The position numbers were made by a program, and so were the translations under genes. A stretch of DNA of 6,577 nt, taken from assembly GCA_022013395.1 (NCBI GenBank), contig JAKLQL010000115.1, forward strand, positions 1 to 6,577, given 5' to 3'. The DNA comes from Acetobacterium sp. GTDB lineage: Bacteria > Bacillota > Clostridia > Eubacteriales > Eubacteriaceae. Under the pieces are notes generated by a model, which ran no database searches, was not told the origin of the DNA, and saw nothing but the letters and a program-made list of their open reading frames with translations. Shown in pieces: positions 1 through 6,577 of the stretch. Position 1 is the stretch's first letter. The number at the start of each line of letters is the position of its first letter.

Positions 1-372
1 AATATTATTTCCCACCATAAGCCGACCTTAACAGCCTATTACACCATGCTGGCCCGGGAATCCGCCAGCCGGGTTGCGGATGTAGATCCGGTCGAACTAC
101 CAAACTGGCGACCCCAGCGAATGATTGAAATGTGGCGTGATATGGATTTTTCCCAGGGTTATCCGGTATTGTGGGGTGAAGCTTTATCACCTTTTGAATA
201 TGAGATCATGAAATACTGTACCGGCAAAAGTACCATCGTGACCATTGCTGACATCCTCTATGACCGATTTGGTAAACCATTTGAAGAAAGCCGTGATGAA
301 TTGATGCAACGGATCATAGAAACCATGAAAGTTTTTGATAAAAAATATTGGCTTCTTGTGGTTCCATTCTAG
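1..372 (+). CDS. Radical SAM RiPP-maturation enzyme, C-terminal fragment (5' cut by window edge)
   Basis: The frame is open from base 1 to a TAG at 370-372, giving 123 residues without a natural start, so this is the tail of a larger protein. It contains no radical SAM motif. It is assigned by similarity to the end of the next gene: both have an R-x3-E-x-WR stretch, then ALSP-x-EYE, C-x-GK, an FG-x-P segment and a KYWL near the terminus. The last ~75 residues look like a small helical/winged-helix domain resembling PqqD-like leader-recognition domains; that is inference from the pattern, not a profile match. Only 3 bases separate its stop from the first possible ATG of the next gene, so the two are almost certainly cotranscribed. 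The ATG at base 46 is internal and not a credible start. The paralog assignment is fairly firm; the exact reaction is unknown. Confidence 0.8.
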   Translation, partial: NIISHHKPTLTAYYTMLARESASRVADVDPVELPNWRPQRMIEMWRDMDFSQGYPVLWGEALSPFEYEIMKYCTGKSTIVTIADILYDRFGKPFEESRDELMQRIIETMKVFDKKYWLLVVPF

Positions 373-375
373 AAA

Positions 376-2100
376 ATGGGTAATAAGATGAAGATACTCC
401 TTTGTAATGTATCAAAAAAATACGAAACAAATGCTCATGACTATGTGGGGCTTTTCTATCTGGCCGGCGCGCTGGAAGTGGCTGGCTTTGAGCCTCTTGT
501 TTTTCATGGAAAACCAGAAAAACTCATGTCAGAAATAGAAAAGAACCAACCAGCGGCCATTGGTTTTTCCTGTGATTTTGACAATCGCGAACTGATTGAA
601 AATCTCGCAAAAAAAATAAAAGCAAAATGGGACATTCCCATTATCGTTGGCGGCCCCCAAAGTATTGGATTAGGAAGCGAATTTCTGGAAAAAAGCCAGG
701 TCGATTATCTGTTAAGAGGCGAAGGTGAGAACGCGCTGCCGCAGCTCTTAAATGCCATATTAAAAGAAAATGGCGAGTTAAGCGACGTCAAAGGTTTGGT
801 CATGATTAAAGACGGGGTTTTTACGGAAACGCTGCCGGAAATCATCGCAGATCTGGATAGGTTGCCGCTACCGGCTTACCATACCTCCCTGCATAGCGAC
901 CACCCCTATGGCAAACTAATTTTTACCGGCAGGGGGTGTCCCTATCAATGTGCCTACTGCGCACCCAGTCCTGGCAAACAAAAGGTAAGGCTAAGAAGCA
1001 TCCCGTTAGTGCTCGATGAAATTAAACTCAACTTAAAAAACAATCCTGATTTAAGCTATATTATTATCATGGATGATGCCTTTACCCTCAACAGAGAGCG
1101 GATTGAAGAATTTTGTCAAAGGATGAAAGAAATCAGAAAAAACCGGGATCTGGTCTGGTATTGCGAATGCCATGTGGGGCAAATAAAAAATTGGATGGAT
1201 ATCCTGCCCACGATGATTGAGGCTGGGCTGATCCGGTTGCAGATTGGCATTGAATCCGGAGATCAGAAGGTCATCGATCAGTACAACAAGCATGTAAAAA
1301 TAACGGATATTATTGAATTTGTGTCCTATGCAGCTGATTGTGGATTGACCCAGATTGCCACCAATTTTATTGTTGGCGGGCCTGAGGAAGAATCCGGAGC
1401 AACCACTAAACTCATCCAAACCCTGATGGATCAAGCTCCCGGAGTCATTGATATCATCACCGGATTTTTAAGAGCTTATCCGGGCACCGCAATATTAAAT
1501 AATCCGGAAAAATTCAAGCTACAGCTTCATGACCAAGACGGTCATCTTTCCAGTGATGATTACCCATTTGTGACACCGGTGGGATGCAGTCAGGATCAGG
1601 TCATGAAAAACCGTCAGGAACTCAATAAGATCATTCGTCAAAGTATGCAAAAGAAAATTAAAAACCATGAATTGAAAAACGAAGTGGTAATGAAGCAATT
1701 TAAAGCTGCTCTGAATTATGGAATCAGGAGCCGATGGTTTGAGGAAATTTCCGCCAATCCAAGAGCCTATGAATATTACTATGTTCTCTATTTAAATGAG
1801 GGACAGGACTTTGAACAATCTCTGGATTTTACCAGAGATTACCCCCAACGAACGTTTGAACTTTGGCGAACCATGACTTTTACTGAAGGGTTCCCAAAAT
1901 TGGATGGCATGGCACTTTCACCATTGGAGTATGAGTTGCTGTTGCGCTGTGCCGGTAAAAGAAACCTGGCCGATATCGAAACCGAATTGTTTTCACTATT
2001 TGGTGGTCCTTATCAAAACCAGGCGGAATTCCATGGAAAATTAGTTGATATTCTGTATCAATTTAATTTTAAATATTGGCTGACTCACTTTATAGTTTAG
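376..2100 (+). CDS. B12-binding-type radical SAM enzyme, putative RiPP maturase (paralog 2)
   Basis: Predicted cytosolic enzyme of 574 residues. Residues ~1-130 form a Rossmann-like cobalamin-binding-type domain: MKILLCN strand, CDFDN at 66-70, GGPQ at 92-95 and a GEGE segment. The radical SAM core carries the 4Fe-4S motif C188-P-Y-Q-C192-A-Y-C195, then a DD-x-FT strand, a WYCECH segment (C263, E264, C265) and G-I-E-S-G with E293. Residues ~489-574 form the extra C-terminal domain shared with the neighbours, possibly leader-binding. The canonical DxHxxG cobalamin-ligand motif is absent, as in many radical SAM methylases, so bound cobalamin is inferred. The start is unresolved: ATG 376 has no clear SD, while ATG 388 (570 residues, MKILL) lines up better with paralog 3 and has a weak GGG upstream. 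After the cluster motif it reads APSPG where the other two complete paralogs have an aromatic-Glu-Gly, hinting at a different substrate or reaction. The precursor gene follows 28 bases downstream. Confidence 0.9.
   Translation: MGNKMKILLCNVSKKYETNAHDYVGLFYLAGALEVAGFEPLVFHGKPEKLMSEIEKNQPAAIGFSCDFDNRELIENLAKKIKAKWDIPIIVGGPQSIGLGSEFLEKSQVDYLLRGEGENALPQLLNAILKENGELSDVKGLVMIKDGVFTETLPEIIADLDRLPLPAYHTSLHSDHPYGKLIFTGRGCPYQCAYCAPSPGKQKVRLRSIPLVLDEIKLNLKNNPDLSYIIIMDDAFTLNRERIEEFCQRMKEIRKNRDLVWYCECHVGQIKNWMDILPTMIEAGLIRLQIGIESGDQKVIDQYNKHVKITDIIEFVSYAADCGLTQIATNFIVGGPEEESGATTKLIQTLMDQAPGVIDIITGFLRAYPGTAILNNPEKFKLQLHDQDGHLSSDDYPFVTPVGCSQDQVMKNRQELNKIIRQSMQKKIKNHELKNEVVMKQFKAALNYGIRSRWFEEISANPRAYEYYYVLYLNEGQDFEQSLDFTRDYPQRTFELWRTMTFTEGFPKLDGMALSPLEYELLLRCAGKRNLADIETELFSLFGGPYQNQAEFHGKLVDILYQFNFKYWLTHFIV
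2045..2073 (+). promoter_or_regulatory. Possible internal promoter for the precursor gene
   Basis: Inside the 3' end of paralog 2, TTGATA (2045-2050, 5/6 to the -35 consensus) is followed after 17 bases by TTTAAA (2068-2073, 4/6 to -10). A second overlapping possibility is TTTAAA as -35 with TATAGT (2091-2096, 5/6) as -10, also at 17 bases. Either would start transcription just upstream of the precursor and raise it above the enzymes. AT-rich coding sequence yields such matches by chance, so support is weak. Confidence 0.22.
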
Positions 2101-2114
2101 CCAAAATCGTTTGG

Positions 2115-2122
2115 AAAGGAGG
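2115..2122 (+). promoter_or_regulatory. Strong Shine-Dalgarno site of the precursor gene
   Basis: AAAGGAGG lies 6 bases before the ATG at 2129. It is the closest match to the anti-SD in the window and settles the start: an upstream in-frame TTG at 2111 lies before this SD and is not used. It suggests the peptide is made in larger amounts than the enzymes, as expected for a RiPP substrate. Confidence 0.85.
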
Positions 2123-2128
2123 ACGAAC

Positions 2129-2401
2129 ATGAGTATTGATGGTGCAAAAGCATTAGCCGCAAAAGTATTAACCGATGAGGCTTTAGCAAAACAACTTGAT
2201 GGTGCTAAAACTGAAGCAGAATTTGCTGCAGTTGTTGCAAAATTGGGTTACAGTGTTACCGCAGCAGAGTTTGATGCAGCTTTTAAAGAAGCTCAGGCTA
2301 AACAACCAATCAGTGATGATCAATTGGATCAGGCTGCCGGTGGTTTAAGTATTGTAGGCGTGGATTACGCATTTACAGCAACACAAACAGCGAGAGCCTA
2401 A
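2129..2401 (+). CDS. Nif11-like leader RiPP precursor peptide, cysteine-free
   Basis: A 90-residue peptide, the likely substrate of the surrounding radical SAM enzymes. Residues 1-72 match the Nif11-type leader pattern: an acidic, alanine-rich helical region beginning MSIDGAKALAAKVLTDEAL, then AKTEAEFAAVVAKLGYSVTA, and a terminal ISDDQLDQAAGG with the Gly71-Gly72 cleavage site typical of C39-type peptidases. The core is residues 73-90, LSIVGVDYAFTATQTARA. There is no cysteine anywhere, so lanthionine and sulfur-to-carbon crosslinks are impossible; tyramine excision of the YG type also looks unlikely since Tyr80 is followed by Ala. ATG 2129 is chosen because a near-perfect SD sits 6 bases upstream. 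Two hairpins follow the stop. The Nif11-type assignment is firm by pattern; the final product and its activity are unknown. Confidence 0.92.
   Translation: MSIDGAKALAAKVLTDEALAKQLDGAKTEAEFAAVVAKLGYSVTAAEFDAAFKEAQAKQPISDDQLDQAAGGLSIVGVDYAFTATQTARA
2345..2398 (+). other. Predicted core peptide region after the Gly-Gly site
   Basis: These 18 codons follow the double glycine and would form the mature product after leader removal. The core is rich in Val, Ala and Thr with single Ile, Asp, Tyr, Phe, Gln and Arg. Bulky nonpolar residues fall at alternate positions (V76, V78, Y80, F82), with T83, T85 and T87 on the other register. Candidate targets for C-methylation are Ile, Val, Thr and Gln; this is inferred from known cobalamin radical SAM peptide methylases. 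Cleavage exactly after Gly72 is assumed from the motif. Confidence 0.65.
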
Positions 2402-2411
2402 ATTAAACACT

Positions 2412-2430
2412 GAAGGGGATTTTCCCCTTC
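2412..2430 (+). repeat. Hairpin 1 after the precursor stop codon
   Basis: GAAGGGGA (2412-2419) and TCCCCTTC (2423-2430) are perfect 8-bp arms with a TTT loop, starting 10 bases after the precursor stop. No U-run follows, so it is not a standard intrinsic terminator. It could protect the 3' end of a processed precursor mRNA or take part in the alternative fold described under hairpin 2. The left arm resembles the SD of the next gene. Confidence 0.85.
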
Positions 2431-2464
2431 GAAGTGCTGACTGGATGGCTACAGTCAGCACTTC
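2431..2464 (+). promoter_or_regulatory. Hairpin 2, 13-bp perfect stem upstream of paralog 3
   Basis: Bases 2431-2443 (GAAGTGCTGACTG) are perfectly complementary to 2452-2464, with an 8-base loop. The hairpin directly abuts hairpin 1 and ends two bases before the AAGGGGG SD stretch of the next gene. No U-tract follows, so termination is not indicated. Bases 2424-2429 (CCCCTT) can also pair with 2466-2471 (AAGGGG), extendable with wobbles to 2420-2429/2466-2475. That outer stem would enclose this hairpin, exclude hairpin 1 and hide the SD. The stem is directly visible; regulation is inferred. Confidence 0.8.
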
Positions 2465-2466
2465 AA

Positions 2467-2474
2467 AGGGGGAG
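2467..2474 (+). promoter_or_regulatory. Shine-Dalgarno site deciding the start of paralog 3
   Basis: AGGGGGAG lies 6 bases before ATG 2481. It decides against the longer in-frame ATG at 2445, which lies in the loop of hairpin 2 and would put the hairpin's right arm and this SD inside the coding region. The site is complementary to the right arm of hairpin 1, so its accessibility may depend on RNA folding. Confidence 0.8.
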
Positions 2475-2480
2475 AGAGAC

Positions 2481-4232
2481 ATGGAACTATTATTGATCAA
2501 ATCACACCGCTATGTCAGCGGTTATATTCCCGGAAGCAATCTGGGAATGAATATCCTGACCCAATTATTAACAAAAAAAGGTTATCAAGTCGAGATGTTT
2601 CAAGGTTATGCCAAAGAAGCCATGGATTATGTCAAGGCACTGATGGAAAAAGAAGATAAGCCGAAAATCATCGGTTTTTATTGTGATTTTAACAATATTC
2701 ACTGGGTTAAGACTTTTTCACAAGAAGTAAAAAAGCAGTATTCAGAACTTATTTTATTGGCGGGAGGCCCTCAAACTGCCGGGATGGATGCCGATTTTTT
2801 AAAAGAAACAGCGATCGAAGCAGCCTGTATCGGTGAGGGTGAGGAAACCATTTTGGAACTGATGGATTTTTTTATCGAAAAAAAAGGAGCGCTCAACGAT
2901 ATCCAGGGGATTATTTTCCGGGATGAAGACGGAAAACTGGTGGAAACCGAACCAAGAAAGCCACCGGAAGATTTGGATGATATTCCCTGGCCGGATATAA
3001 CCCTGACCAACGATTATAAATATTACGGACTGCTGCCGATCTTAACCGGACGAGGCTGTCCTTTTGGCTGTACCTTTTGCTATGAAGGTGCCAATGCTAA
3101 ACGGGTTCGCCGTCACTCGGTGCCTTCGCTGATGACGGAAATCAGAGCGAACTTTAAACGGAACCCAGCCATCAATTACATTAATTTTCTTGATGATACC
3201 TTTACCCTGGATCATAAACGGGTTGATTATATTTGTGAAGAAGTCAACAAAATCAGGGCAGATTATGATTTTGTCTGGTTTGCCAGCGCCCATATTTCAA
3301 CCATTGACAAGCATCGGGAGATGGCCAGGAATCTGGCAGATGCTGGTCTTAAAAAGATTTTTTTTGGATTGGAATCCGGCAGTGATCAGGTTTTAAAAAG
3401 TTATAATAAAAAAATAACGCGAAAAATGGCCGTGGATGTCATTGATCATTGCGTGGAATCAGGAATTCATGGCATTTCCGGCAATATTATTATTGGTGGG
3501 CCCCATGAAACGAGGGACACCATTCAAGAATCAGAAGATTTGATTATGGAGCTGCTCCATAATGCCCCGGGTCAGTTCGAAACCGCTTATTTTTCATTTT
3601 TACCTTATCCCAAAACACCCATTACCCTTAATCCCGAAAAATTCGGCATGGAAATTTATGAGGATCTGATTGATTGCTGTAATGAGGATATTCCTCTTTC
3701 TCGAACCCAAGCACTGGATTTTACCGATCTGATCAATATTCGCCTGCAGGCCAATAAGCGGCTGCAGAATGAAATGCGCAAAATTTATTTTGATGGAAAA
3801 ATTCCGGAAGCAGTAATTCTGGATTCCTACCGACTCGGCCGCCAATATGGGGTATTTACCCGTTGGAATGATTATGTCTATAAAAATATTCCGATTGATG
3901 ATGCTTACTGGAAAATGCGGGCCTCGGATGAGTATGTTATCAATGCTCAAGTAGGAAGAAATGATGAAGCCGCTATTGTCCACCGAACCTTTGAATTGTG
4001 GTTATATACCGATGTTACCGCCGAAAAACCGCAGATATTTGATCAAACGCTGGATGAAATCGACTATACCCTCTTGAAACTCTGCAACGGACGATTATCG
4101 AAAAAAGATGTACTACAGCAGGCCAGAAAAAATCTGGATCCTCAGGAAAAGAACCCGGATTTTTATGGTAAGGCAGCCCAATCCCTGAATAAAATGGAGG
4201 GGAATAAGTGGATTTTATATCGGAAACCGTAA
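2481..4232 (+). CDS. B12-binding-type radical SAM enzyme, putative RiPP maturase (paralog 3)
   Basis: Predicted cytosolic enzyme of 583 residues, first gene after the precursor. The N-terminal cobalamin-binding-type domain shows MELLLIK, CDFNN with Cys at 68, GGPQ at 95-98 and GEGEE. The radical SAM core has C193-P-F-G-C197-T-F-C200, then YEG, a DDTFT strand and G-L-E-S-G with E298, followed by an IIIGGP strand. The C-terminal domain from ~501 keeps HRTFELW, L-C-N-GR, F-Y-GK and a KW-I-L end, aligning with paralog 2. Where paralogs 2 and 4 have Cys-Glu after the conserved VW-aromatic, this protein has Ala268-Ser269, so its active site may differ. The start rests on a strong SD. Its last 25 bases overlap the start of the next gene, implying coupled translation. 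A C-methyltransferase role is plausible but unproven; other radical chemistry remains possible. Confidence 0.92.
   Translation: MELLLIKSHRYVSGYIPGSNLGMNILTQLLTKKGYQVEMFQGYAKEAMDYVKALMEKEDKPKIIGFYCDFNNIHWVKTFSQEVKKQYSELILLAGGPQTAGMDADFLKETAIEAACIGEGEETILELMDFFIEKKGALNDIQGIIFRDEDGKLVETEPRKPPEDLDDIPWPDITLTNDYKYYGLLPILTGRGCPFGCTFCYEGANAKRVRRHSVPSLMTEIRANFKRNPAINYINFLDDTFTLDHKRVDYICEEVNKIRADYDFVWFASAHISTIDKHREMARNLADAGLKKIFFGLESGSDQVLKSYNKKITRKMAVDVIDHCVESGIHGISGNIIIGGPHETRDTIQESEDLIMELLHNAPGQFETAYFSFLPYPKTPITLNPEKFGMEIYEDLIDCCNEDIPLSRTQALDFTDLINIRLQANKRLQNEMRKIYFDGKIPEAVILDSYRLGRQYGVFTRWNDYVYKNIPIDDAYWKMRASDEYVINAQVGRNDEAAIVHRTFELWLYTDVTAEKPQIFDQTLDEIDYTLLKLCNGRLSKKDVLQQARKNLDPQEKNPDFYGKAAQSLNKMEGNKWILYRKP
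4196..4202 (+). promoter_or_regulatory. Shine-Dalgarno site for the GTG start of paralog 4
   Basis: GGAGGGG lies within the last codons of paralog 3; its GGAGG is 7 bases before GTG 4208. It supports this non-ATG start over the first internal ATG (4271), which would remove the first beta strand (KILLVYTQ) of the N-terminal domain. Confidence 0.75.
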
Positions 4233-5911
4233 CCAACAAACCAAAGATTTTACTGGTTTATACGCAGCGCATGGTCCGGGGACGAACCTTTGAAATGATC
4301 GAAAATCTGGGGATCTTAACTCTGACCGCCCAACTCAATGGCAATGGTTTTGAGGCAACCGCCTACACTGGGATTACCACCGATGCGGTGAAAATCATTG
4401 AAAAAATGAAAGATGACCTATTTGCAGTCTGTTTTTATTGTGATTTTGATAATCGTTCGGCAGTGGCGGCTATCATCAACTATTTAAAAAGAAATGATGA
4501 TTTTTATGTGCTCTTGGGCGGTCCTCAAACCCTGCACATGACCAGTGCAGATTTGAAGACCTTTGGAGCTGATGCGATTATCAAAGGCGAAGGGGAAGAA
4601 ACACTGTTATCCTGGTTAAATGCCAAGGTCAGGGGAGCAGAGGTTTTTGTTCAGGGCGAAATCCGGCCTGATCAAAATGCCGATTACGTTTATCTGGAAG
4701 ATTTCTCAAAATACGAATTGCCTCGAAATGAAGATGTGCTTAATTATCAGGAACGACCACTGTTGTCGGTGATTACCGCCAGGGGCTGTCCTTATCGCTG
4801 CGCTTTTTGCTTTGAGGGCGGGAATTCCAAGAATTTGAGAATGCGATCGGCAGAAGAAGTACTAAACGAAATCGAAATGCGCATAAAAAACAGTCAGCGT
4901 CCCCGTTACCTGTTTTTTTGCGATGATACCTTTACCACCAACCCAGTGCGATTGAAAAAGATTTTGTCCGGACTCCGAACCCTTCGGAAAAATTATGACT
5001 TTGTCTGGTTTTGTGAAGGACATCCCGGTTTTTTGGTAAAGCATCCCGAACTGATCCGCGAAATGATTGACAGCGGGATGGTCCGGATGCAGATCGGGAT
5101 GGAGTCAGGGGTGGAAGCGATACTAAAGGCCTATGGAAAACAGGCCAGACCAGAGGACATCCAAAAAGTGGTGGAAATCTGTTATGCCGAAGGATTGCCC
5201 CAGTTAACCGGAAATTATATTATCGGCGGAGCTTTCGAAACAGCAAAAACGCTTCAGGAAACCACCGAAAAAGTCCTGGAACTCCTGGATTTAGCTCCAG
5301 GAATGTTGGATTTATCAACAACCTTTATGATGCCTCTGCCTGGAACGCAGATCTACAATCACCCGGAAACCTTTGGGATTGTTCTGGAAGATCGGGAATG
5401 TCTTACCAACCTGGAGGACTTCCCTGTGAACCATACCCAGGAACTGTCTCTGCCGGAAATCTGTATGGGTCGCTCCCGTCTTATTACTGCGGTTTCCAAT
5501 AAAATGAAAGACCAGTATGAAAAAGGTTTGATTCCCAAAGAACGGATCAGAGCAGACTTCAACCTGGCTTTTAACTACGGCATTGCTGCCGGATACCTTA
5601 AATTTATTTATGCCAAAGACCCAGTAATGGTGGCGTACTATAAAAAGCTGATTGAATATAAGGGTATTTTGAAAGAATGGCATGAACTCAGTGAGGCAGA
5701 GAAAAACAACTGGATTATCCACAAAATTCCGGATTTTTCAATGATGGATCTGGATTCGCTCAACCAAACCGAAATTGACATACTCAGCTATTCCGGAAGA
5801 TTTACCACCACCGAAATGGCAGAAAAACTGAAACTGCCTTTCGTGGAGATGAAAAACCTGCTGATAAAAATGAATGACAAGCATTTGATTTTGTTTTCAG
5901 CATTTATTTAG
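4208..5911 (+). CDS. B12-binding-type radical SAM enzyme, putative RiPP maturase (paralog 4)
   Basis: Predicted cytosolic enzyme of 567 residues starting at GTG. The first strand, KILLVYTQ, comes after an ~11-residue extension. CDFDN has its Cys at 78, GGPQ is at 104-107, and GEGEE follows. The radical SAM motif is C194-P-Y-R-C198-A-F-C201 with FEGGNSK after it, then DDTFT, WFCEGH (C269, E270) and G-M-E-S-G with E301-equivalent Glu at residue 299. The C-terminal domain is the most divergent of the set: the FELW and C-GK residues are gone, but an LNQTEIDIL...TTTEMAEKL...LLIKM pattern still looks like a winged helix (~518-567). It overlaps paralog 3 by 25 bases in another frame and appears to end the enzyme run. 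Membership of the family is firm; whether it acts on the same peptide or at a different site is unknown. Confidence 0.92.
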   Translation: MDFISETVTNKPKILLVYTQRMVRGRTFEMIENLGILTLTAQLNGNGFEATAYTGITTDAVKIIEKMKDDLFAVCFYCDFDNRSAVAAIINYLKRNDDFYVLLGGPQTLHMTSADLKTFGADAIIKGEGEETLLSWLNAKVRGAEVFVQGEIRPDQNADYVYLEDFSKYELPRNEDVLNYQERPLLSVITARGCPYRCAFCFEGGNSKNLRMRSAEEVLNEIEMRIKNSQRPRYLFFCDDTFTTNPVRLKKILSGLRTLRKNYDFVWFCEGHPGFLVKHPELIREMIDSGMVRMQIGMESGVEAILKAYGKQARPEDIQKVVEICYAEGLPQLTGNYIIGGAFETAKTLQETTEKVLELLDLAPGMLDLSTTFMMPLPGTQIYNHPETFGIVLEDRECLTNLEDFPVNHTQELSLPEICMGRSRLITAVSNKMKDQYEKGLIPKERIRADFNLAFNYGIAAGYLKFIYAKDPVMVAYYKKLIEYKGILKEWHELSEAEKNNWIIHKIPDFSMMDLDSLNQTEIDILSYSGRFTTTEMAEKLKLPFVEMKNLLIKMNDKHLILFSAFI

Positions 5912-5915
5912 TTTA

Positions 5916-5931
5916 AGCTTATCGGTAAGCT
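5916..5931 (+). repeat. Short inverted repeat after the enzyme genes
   Basis: AGCTTA (5916-5921) and TAAGCT (5926-5931) flank a TCGG loop, just after the stop of paralog 4. The stem is only 6 bp and AT-rich with no adjacent U-run, so it is a poor terminator candidate. The rest of the 69-base gap holds a direct repeat ATTACC-GG-ATTACC (5947-5960) and the SD of the next gene (AAGGAG, 5969-5974). I see no convincing promoter, so readthrough into the next gene cannot be excluded. Confidence 0.3.
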
Positions 5932-5980
5932 CACGGCACTTTTGCAATTACCGGATTACCTAAAACGTAAGGAGAGGGTT

Positions 5981-6577
5981 ATGAAAAAAAATCGGATGAT
6001 CGTATCCATCCTCGCTATATTCGTCATTGGCAGTGTGCTTTGTTTTGGTTGTACCGCCAAAACTACTAAAACAAGCACCCTGTCAGTGGATGTGGTTTAT
6101 CCATTTTCTGAAGATTATAGCGCTTCTTTCAAAAATGGAATCGAACTGGCCGCCAAAGAAATCAATGAACAGGGTGGTATTCTAAATCAGACCATTGAAA
6201 TCAATTATAATGATGACGGCAATAATACCAATACAGCAGTGGAAGTGGCGACCATGATCGCAGAAAAACAGGGCTTTCCGATTGTCATTGGTCATCGCAG
6301 CACCGACGATGTGCTGAAGGTGGCCAGTATTTATAATCAGAATAATAAGCTGCTGTTTGCGCCCATTATTGCCAGTTCAAAGGTAAGTCTGGGAGAAAAC
6401 GAAGGGGCTTATCTCTGCGCCCCGTCCGATGACGAAATGGCTGCGGAAATGGTTCAAAGCATGACGGCTCAGGGAATCACCAAGATTGCCATGGTTCATA
6501 CTGCCAGCAATACCTACGGCAAAGACTATATTCAAAAGGTCGAAGAACACGCCAAACAGGCAGGCATCGAAATTGTG
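5981..6577 (+). CDS. LivK-like ABC transporter solute-binding lipoprotein, N-terminal part (3' cut by window edge)
   Basis: The frame stays open to the window end, giving 199 residues of a protein whose family is usually ~370-400. ATG 5981 has AAGGAG 6 bases upstream. The N-terminus (MKKNRM, then a hydrophobic stretch ending VLCFGC) is a lipoprotein signal, with Cys24 the likely lipidated residue; the lipobox is unusual, with Cys at -3 and Phe at -2. The mature part resembles type I periplasmic-binding proteins of the branched-chain amino acid/amide group: FKNGIELAAKEINEQGGI, then INYNDDGNN, an IVIGHRST segment where the family has its ligand-binding G-x-x-S loop, and a KIAMVH...TYGKDY strand-helix of the second lobe. 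It would sit outside the membrane and deliver a small solute to a permease not seen here. The ligand cannot be told from the sequence. It has no evident link to peptide maturation. Confidence 0.88.
   Translation, partial: MKKNRMIVSILAIFVIGSVLCFGCTAKTTKTSTLSVDVVYPFSEDYSASFKNGIELAAKEINEQGGILNQTIEINYNDDGNNTNTAVEVATMIAEKQGFPIVIGHRSTDDVLKVASIYNQNNKLLFAPIIASSKVSLGENEGAYLCAPSDDEMAAEMVQSMTAQGITKIAMVHTASNTYGKDYIQKVEEHAKQAGIEIV

What the first reader, a model, noticed from the sequence alone, without database searches (positions are those of the whole stretch)
1..5911. One cysteine-free Nif11-type precursor served by at least four tandem B12-type radical SAM paralogs
The sequence shows three complete enzymes with CxxxCxxC motifs and a fourth as a C-terminal fragment, arranged around a single 90-residue Nif11-leader peptide without cysteine. 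Characterised Nif11-type systems often involve lanthionine or thioether formation, which this core cannot undergo. Several different enzymes on one short core suggests stepwise or site-specific modification of unactivated carbons (for example C-methylation), giving a product class I cannot name. Novelty is inference.
Basis: partly seen in the sequence, partly recalled or inferred. Interest (0 to 1): 0.8.

Follow-up and report, generated by a model that had tools for sequence, protein, structure and literature searches.

The report
Five B12 radical enzymes, one peptide
Acetobacterium and a scatter of other anaerobic bacteria keep five vitamin-B12-type radical enzyme modules around, usually, one small peptide gene whose ten-residue core hardly changes, so the enzymes are predicted to turn that core into one fixed, still unknown and probably secreted molecule.

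Summary
Relatives with the whole locus have four enzyme genes with five B12-binding/radical SAM modules: a ~1200-aa double protein (window 1-372 is its end), B, C and D. They surround a Nif11-leader precursor; in Acetobacterium a lipoprotein and an NHLM-type peptidase/exporter follow. All five modules, each with CxxxCxxC, occur in 18 of 18 loci examined (all found through the precursor), in Bacillota and Synergistota. The new point is the core: LSIVGVDYAF is nearly invariant (mean pairwise identity 0.81; leader 0.47), the reverse of the Nif11 prochlorosins. So five enzymes serve one fixed product. The modules' fold is that of B12-radical enzymes, mostly C-methyltransferases, but B, C, D and A reach no named-family cut-off tested; the C-terminus of A looks like a leader-binding RRE domain (weak evidence). 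Several radical modifications of the core, mainly C-methylation, are the likeliest chemistry (inferred). Heliobacterium keeps enzymes and core but lacks GG and a detected exporter. The Acetobacterium cluster was mentioned in passing in 2019; my searches found no description of the family.

The parts
1..372 (+). C-terminal 123 aa of the second module (A2) of a ~1200-aa double B12/radical SAM protein; its last ~80 aa resemble a leader-binding RRE (PqqD-like) domain
   Evidence: homologous ends in 18 loci; structural matches to RRE proteins; similar to the C-termini of the other modules
376..2100 (+). B12-binding/radical SAM module B, 574 aa
   Evidence: orthologue in 18 of 18 loci examined
2129..2344 (+). 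Nif11-type leader (72 aa, ends in GG)
2345..2398 (+). core peptide LSIVGVDYAFTATQTARA
2345..2374 (+). near-invariant core segment LSIVGVDYAF (residues 73-82)
   Evidence: identity and codon counts
2412..2430 (+). first hairpin between precursor and enzyme C (GAAGGGG/CCCCTTC)
2431..2464 (+). second hairpin; 2424-2429 can extend it by pairing with the ribosome site of gene C
2465..2472 (+). Shine-Dalgarno-like AAAGGGGG before gene C
2481..4232 (+). B12-binding/radical SAM module C, 583 aa
4208..5911 (+). B12-binding/radical SAM module D, up to 567 aa; GTG start overlaps the end of gene C
   Evidence: orthologue in 18 of 18 loci examined
5981..6577 (+). start of a substrate-binding lipoprotein (Peripla_BP_6, LCFGC lipobox), cut by the contig end; among the loci read, found only in those of the Acetobacterium genus

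Best explanation
The window holds most of a conserved gene set, one Nif11-leader precursor with a near-invariant core and five B12-binding radical SAM modules in four genes (the first gene is cut here), which is predicted to install several radical modifications, most likely C-methylations, on one fixed ten-residue core. Each module would dock on the leader, probably through its C-terminal winged-helix (RRE-like) domain, and act at its own position within LSIVGVDYAF; G77, D79, Y80 and F82 are the near-fixed frame. In many hosts the C39 peptidase of an NHLM-type exporter would then cut behind GG and export the product. Because the core is held almost constant across two phyla, the product should be one defined molecule with a conserved partner (a signal, a metal or cofactor ligand, or a fixed target), not a varied antibiotic. 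Shown: gene set, co-occurrence in the genus, synteny, core constraint, B12/radical SAM fold of module C. Inferred: substrate relation, order, chemistry, export, function.
Confidence: 0.55

Rival explanations
1. The modules build cross-links or rings (C-C, C-O or C-N bonds involving D79, Y80 and F82) rather than mainly methyl groups, giving a polycyclic peptide.
For: The fixed residues G-x-D-[YF]-x-F are aromatic/acidic, while the aliphatic positions 73, 75 and 78 vary more; the modules match HpnJ, BchE and OxsB-type relatives, which include ring-forming or ring-changing enzymes (recalled).
Against: Four of the six nearest solved enzymes by fold are methyltransferases.
Confidence: 0.2
2. The peptide is raw material for a small peptide-derived cofactor or metabolite (as PQQ or mycofactocin are, recalled), cut out around GVDY and partly used inside the cell.
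For: Near-invariant core, one orthologous precursor in 12 of 12 genomes, patchy but cross-phylum spread; Heliobacterium has the enzymes and core but no GG, and no NHLM ABC1 was found in its genome.
Against: 7 of 10 genomes carry an NHLM ABC1 over the cut-off, 4 of them near the set. Whether a peptidase or partner enzyme is conserved beside the set was not searched systematically; flanking ORFs were compared only with the Acetobacterium operon.
Confidence: 0.15
3. It is an ordinary NHLM-type bacteriocin.
For: NHLM export genes; antiSMASH filed the Acetobacterium cluster under bacteriocin (PMC6925170, passages).
Against: A core fixed across phyla is unlike diversifying antibiotic cores (inference). 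Immunity genes were not searched for.
Confidence: 0.1

Closest known systems
Nif11-leader RiPP precursors (TIGR03798/PF07862), e.g. prochlorosins
   Same: Leader family and GG site; export by an NHLM-type transporter is the usual arrangement (recalled)
   Different: Prochlorosins have conserved leaders and less conserved or hypervariable precursors/cores modified by ProcM enzymes (PMC10783134, passages); here the core is the more conserved part and is mostly Cys-free (52 of 56)
Polytheonamide (PoyB, PoyC) and bottromycin (three radical C-methyltransferases)
   Same: B12-type radical enzymes acting on carbons of a ribosomal peptide
   Different: Two and three such enzymes respectively (PMC11285071, passages), against five modules here; modules fall far below TIGR03975; that PoyB/PoyC belong to that model, and that the polytheonamide leader is NHLP-type, is recalled
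ApyD of aminopyruvatide biosynthesis
   Same: RRE-containing B12-radical enzyme, makes beta-methyltyrosine (PMC10635010, passages); best-scoring NCBIfam relative of module B
   Different: Single enzyme in a P450/MNIO cluster; score 110.7 against a cut-off of 750
Acetobacterium 'bacteriocin' cluster of PMC6925170
   Same: Very probably the same locus: seven syntenic genes with four radical SAM proteins, HlyD, a Nif11-like precursor and a hypothetical protein, homologous to a cluster of A. woodii and not found in A. bacchi
   Different: Told in two or three sentences of the passages read; no domain-module count, core conservation or spread beyond the genus there

Membership tests
Nif11-leader RiPP precursor | Leader scores over PF07862 and TIGR03798 cut-offs | tested here: met
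   46.8 against 23.8 and 45.5 against 32.3 bits
Nif11-leader RiPP precursor | GG or similar cleavage site before the core | tested here: met
   GG in the window; GG in 49 of 56 aligned relatives, AG/VG/LG in 7
Nif11-leader RiPP precursor | Core is post-translationally modified | not testable with these tools
   needs mass spectrometry
B12-dependent (class B) radical SAM enzyme | N-terminal B12-binding fold plus radical SAM domain with CxxxCxxC | tested here: met
   the B12-binding domain of module D is below the Pfam cut-off (27.5 against 32.1)
B12-dependent (class B) radical SAM enzyme | Binds cobalamin and uses SAM | not testable with these tools
   biochemistry needed
RiPP radical SAM C-methyltransferase TIGR03975 (rSAM_ocin_1) | Score over curated cut-off 281.85 | tested here: not met
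   79.8 (B), 88.5 (C), 32.5 (D), 129.2 (whole A of G009)
ApyD (NF050148) | Score over curated cut-off 750 | tested here: not met
   110.7 (B), 98.5 (C), 47.8 (D), 199.3 (whole A of G009)
NHLM bacteriocin export system | ABC2 (TIGR03797) and ABC1 with C39 peptidase (TIGR03796) over cut-off | tested here: met
   ABC2 764.3 against 709.4 in the same-species genome; ABC1 of the genus-mate G012 907.2 against 853.3; the same-species ABC1 was scored only as a 441-aa piece (466.5; Peptidase_C39 present)
NHLM bacteriocin export system | HlyD subunit over TIGR03794 cut-off | tested here: not met
   58.9 against 156.2
RRE (PqqD-like leader-binding domain) | Winged-helix RRE fold at the C-terminus of the modules | tested here: inconclusive

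The most novel reading that the evidence does not exclude
A distinct RiPP class: five B12-radical SAM modules, the largest such set on one ribosomal peptide that I know of, convert an invariant G-V-D-Y-A-F core into a single conserved molecule, shared by acetogens, Synergistota, Heliobacterium and other anaerobes, that acts as a signal or a peptide-derived cofactor rather than as an antibiotic.
Probability: 0.35. Interest if true: 0.85.

Novelty: new variant of a known kind. Interest (0 to 1): 0.62.

Why it matters
A ribosomal peptide whose core is more conserved than its leader, attended by five separately conserved radical enzymes, points to a fixed and valuable product in acetogens and other anaerobes. 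It is also a compact test set for B12-radical chemistry: five natural modules, one short substrate, named cultured strains (Acetobacterium, Sporomusa malonica, Heliobacterium), and a natural experiment in Heliobacterium, where the double module is two separate genes and no NHLM exporter was found.

Tried and rejected
Rfam scan of the window: nothing over gathering scores. Search of the library for the string VGVDYAF: no paper. Literature searches for the system: only the passing mention in PMC6925170; of the listed papers I opened, by term search only, PMC2887384, PMC4289311, PMC13331322 and PMC8326336, and the passages gave no description of it; the other listed papers were seen as listings. 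Defence-system models: weak matches of B and D to PDC-M51A (55 and 46.6 bits), taken as general B12/radical SAM likeness. Considered and rejected: thioether or lanthionine chemistry on this core (no Cys in the window precursor; 4 of 56 relatives have a core Cys, 19 of 56 a leader Cys); conservation by recency (whole-precursor identity falls to 41% in alignment A2, and there are 734 synonymous core codon differences; these are raw pair counts over related loci, not per site and not independent). Covariation of the hairpins is only suggestive: 5 pairs with two-sided changes against 2.6 in shuffles (12 of 500 shuffles as high; 66 of 500 for pair types), and relatedness is not controlled; no shuffle control was made for the folding energies. 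The module tree carries long-branch warnings and places proteins from elsewhere between the five clades, so the five are not one exclusive group. The ABC1 search at E<=1e-100 also rang in 6 of 14 control genomes, none over the cut-off, so only the cut-off counts are used. Rows dropped: A1 used 45 of 51 precursor clusters (6 short ones left out); A2 used 56 of the 112 clusters; one search used 18 of the 22 loci (L041, L046, L054, L056 left out); the tree used 8 of those 18 loci and 21 of 73 clusters; A3 used 51 of 73; A5 used 14 of 22 loci plus the window (four Synergistaceae, the Thermoclostridium and Eubacteriales loci and two with inserts left out); one search used 20 loci plus the window. 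Structures were compared with the PDB only (Foldseek, and VIA-align for one model). Prevalence in Synergistaceae was not obtained.
Full report
What is there. The window spans contig G000:C35, bases 1-6577, of a 2.69-Mb draft genome of 666 contigs. Genus-mates found match named Acetobacterium records in position and contig length (for example G016:C40, 124,697 bases, and A. wieringae CSMB_175), so the host is an Acetobacterium or very near it. The first 372 bases are the tail of a protein that is whole in the same-species genome G009: 1200 aa with two radical SAM and two B12-binding stretches. The order in G009 is A (modules A1+A2) - B - precursor - C - D - lipoprotein - HlyD - ABC1 with C39 peptidase - ABC2.

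The set is conserved. The same four genes and precursor stand together in Sporomusa malonica, Candidatus Formimonas warabiya, a Thermoclostridium MAG and Synergistaceae MAGs; in the three Synergistaceae loci long enough to show it the order is precursor-C-D-A-B. All five modules were found in 18 of 18 loci examined (of 22; all had been found through the precursor), with CxxxCxxC in every one, and each module is its own clade with 100/100 support in a tree of 8 loci and 21 further relatives; some of those relatives fall between the five clades, and the program warns of long branches. Among the loci read, the lipoprotein was seen only in the Acetobacterium genus.

Co-occurrence. In the genus, 16 of 19 genomes have five module matches, the window's own has four because of its assembly gap, G011 shows only D with the downstream genes because the locus runs off its contig, and G003 has none; the precursor is in the same 17 genomes. 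Orthologues of C (E<=1e-120) were found in 4 of 391 sampled genomes of the class, all in this genus, and precursors (E<=1e-15) in 2 of 398 sampled genomes of the phylum: the set is rare and scattered, which suggests horizontal spread (inference). Among 12 genomes reached through loci, each has one precursor of this family at E 2e-36 to 2e-39; other Nif11 peptides score 4e-13 or weaker.

The core. In 56 relatives the leader (residues 1-72) has mean pairwise identity 0.47, residues 73-82 (LSIVGVDYAF) 0.81, and residues 83-90 0.37; G72 and D79 are invariant, G77 is 55 of 56, Y80 and F82 are 54 of 56. In 21 genes the ten core codons differ by 734 synonymous and 58 non-synonymous pairwise differences, the leader by 4536 and 2846 (raw counts over related loci). 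Of all 112 precursor clusters, 96 hold G-x-D-[YF] and 85 hold [VIL]G[VI]DYxF near the C-terminus; of the 16 without the first motif, six are short or altered at the end, one has A for G, and nine are remote Nif11 peptides. Some loci add variant precursors (ITLVGIDYPFVMTPIVP in A. wieringae, ARGIDFYENSIW in G012), which again keep G-x-D-[YF]. For prochlorosins the reverse is reported, a conserved leader and a less conserved core (PMC10783134, passages).

Export. NHLM ABC1 is over the family cut-off in 7 of 10 genomes. It lies near the set in G012, G423, G424 and G425, 25 kb away in G426, and on other contigs in G427 and G429; G430 has a fragment; nothing at E<=1e-100 was found in G428 (a MAG) or G749 (99% complete). 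G749's precursor has VG instead of GG. Export is therefore usual, perhaps not obligatory.

An RNA element. Between precursor and gene C each of the 22 loci folds into stable hairpins (-24.7 to -86.1 kcal/mol; no shuffle control). In 15 aligned sequences, hairpin 1 and an extended hairpin 2 compete for the same CCCCTTC, and the extended form would hide the ribosome site of gene C; the state with a free ribosome site lies 1.9 kcal/mol above the best fold in the window, 0 to 5.4 over the 15, and in 4 of 15 it is itself the best fold. Hairpin 2 has five pairs with two-sided changes. Two loci carry long inserts inside its loop with the stem kept (L044, L046). A translational switch, or a device that gives more precursor than enzyme, is plausible.

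How it most likely works. Each module docks on the leader and modifies a set place in the fixed core by radical chemistry, C-methylation first among the candidates: ApyD, the best-scoring named relative of module B, makes beta-methyltyrosine (PMC10635010, passages), and the core has an almost invariant Tyr. Bottromycin uses three and polytheonamide two such enzymes (PMC11285071, passages). All chemistry is inferred.

Novelty. The Acetobacterium cluster is in print in a few sentences (PMC6925170, passages). Searches found no account of the five-module family, its core or its spread; the library holds open-licence papers only.

Noticed in passing
2402-2480: Two competing hairpins between precursor and enzyme C; the longer one would cover the ribosome site of gene C.
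   Followed up: partly
5981-6577: Start of a substrate-binding lipoprotein, with no permease gene seen beside it, placed between enzymes and exporter in loci of the Acetobacterium genus; possibly captures or senses the product.
   Followed up: partly
L067 9322-19901 and L068 3-1013: Heliobacterium locus with A1 and A2 as separate genes, an extra A1-like gene, a precursor without GG and no NHLM ABC1 found in the genome.
   Followed up: partly
L038 9586-10776, L037 5991-6678, L033 (minus strand) precursors: Extra precursors beside the standard one, some with variant cores (ITLVGIDYPF..., TSMIGFDYPF..., ARGIDFYENSIW).
   Followed up: no
L044 10274-10510 and L046 10277-10522: Inserts of roughly 160 bases inside the loop of the second hairpin, stem kept; possible small mobile repeats.
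   Followed up: no
L071 5358-6773: In G011 the exporter gene ABC1 is split, with a 471-aa ORF between its parts.
   Followed up: no
L069 9076-11973, L070 1959-4898: ABC2 exporters of Sporomusa and a Synergistaceae genome are 965 and 979 aa, longer than the 715-aa Acetobacterium form.
   Followed up: no
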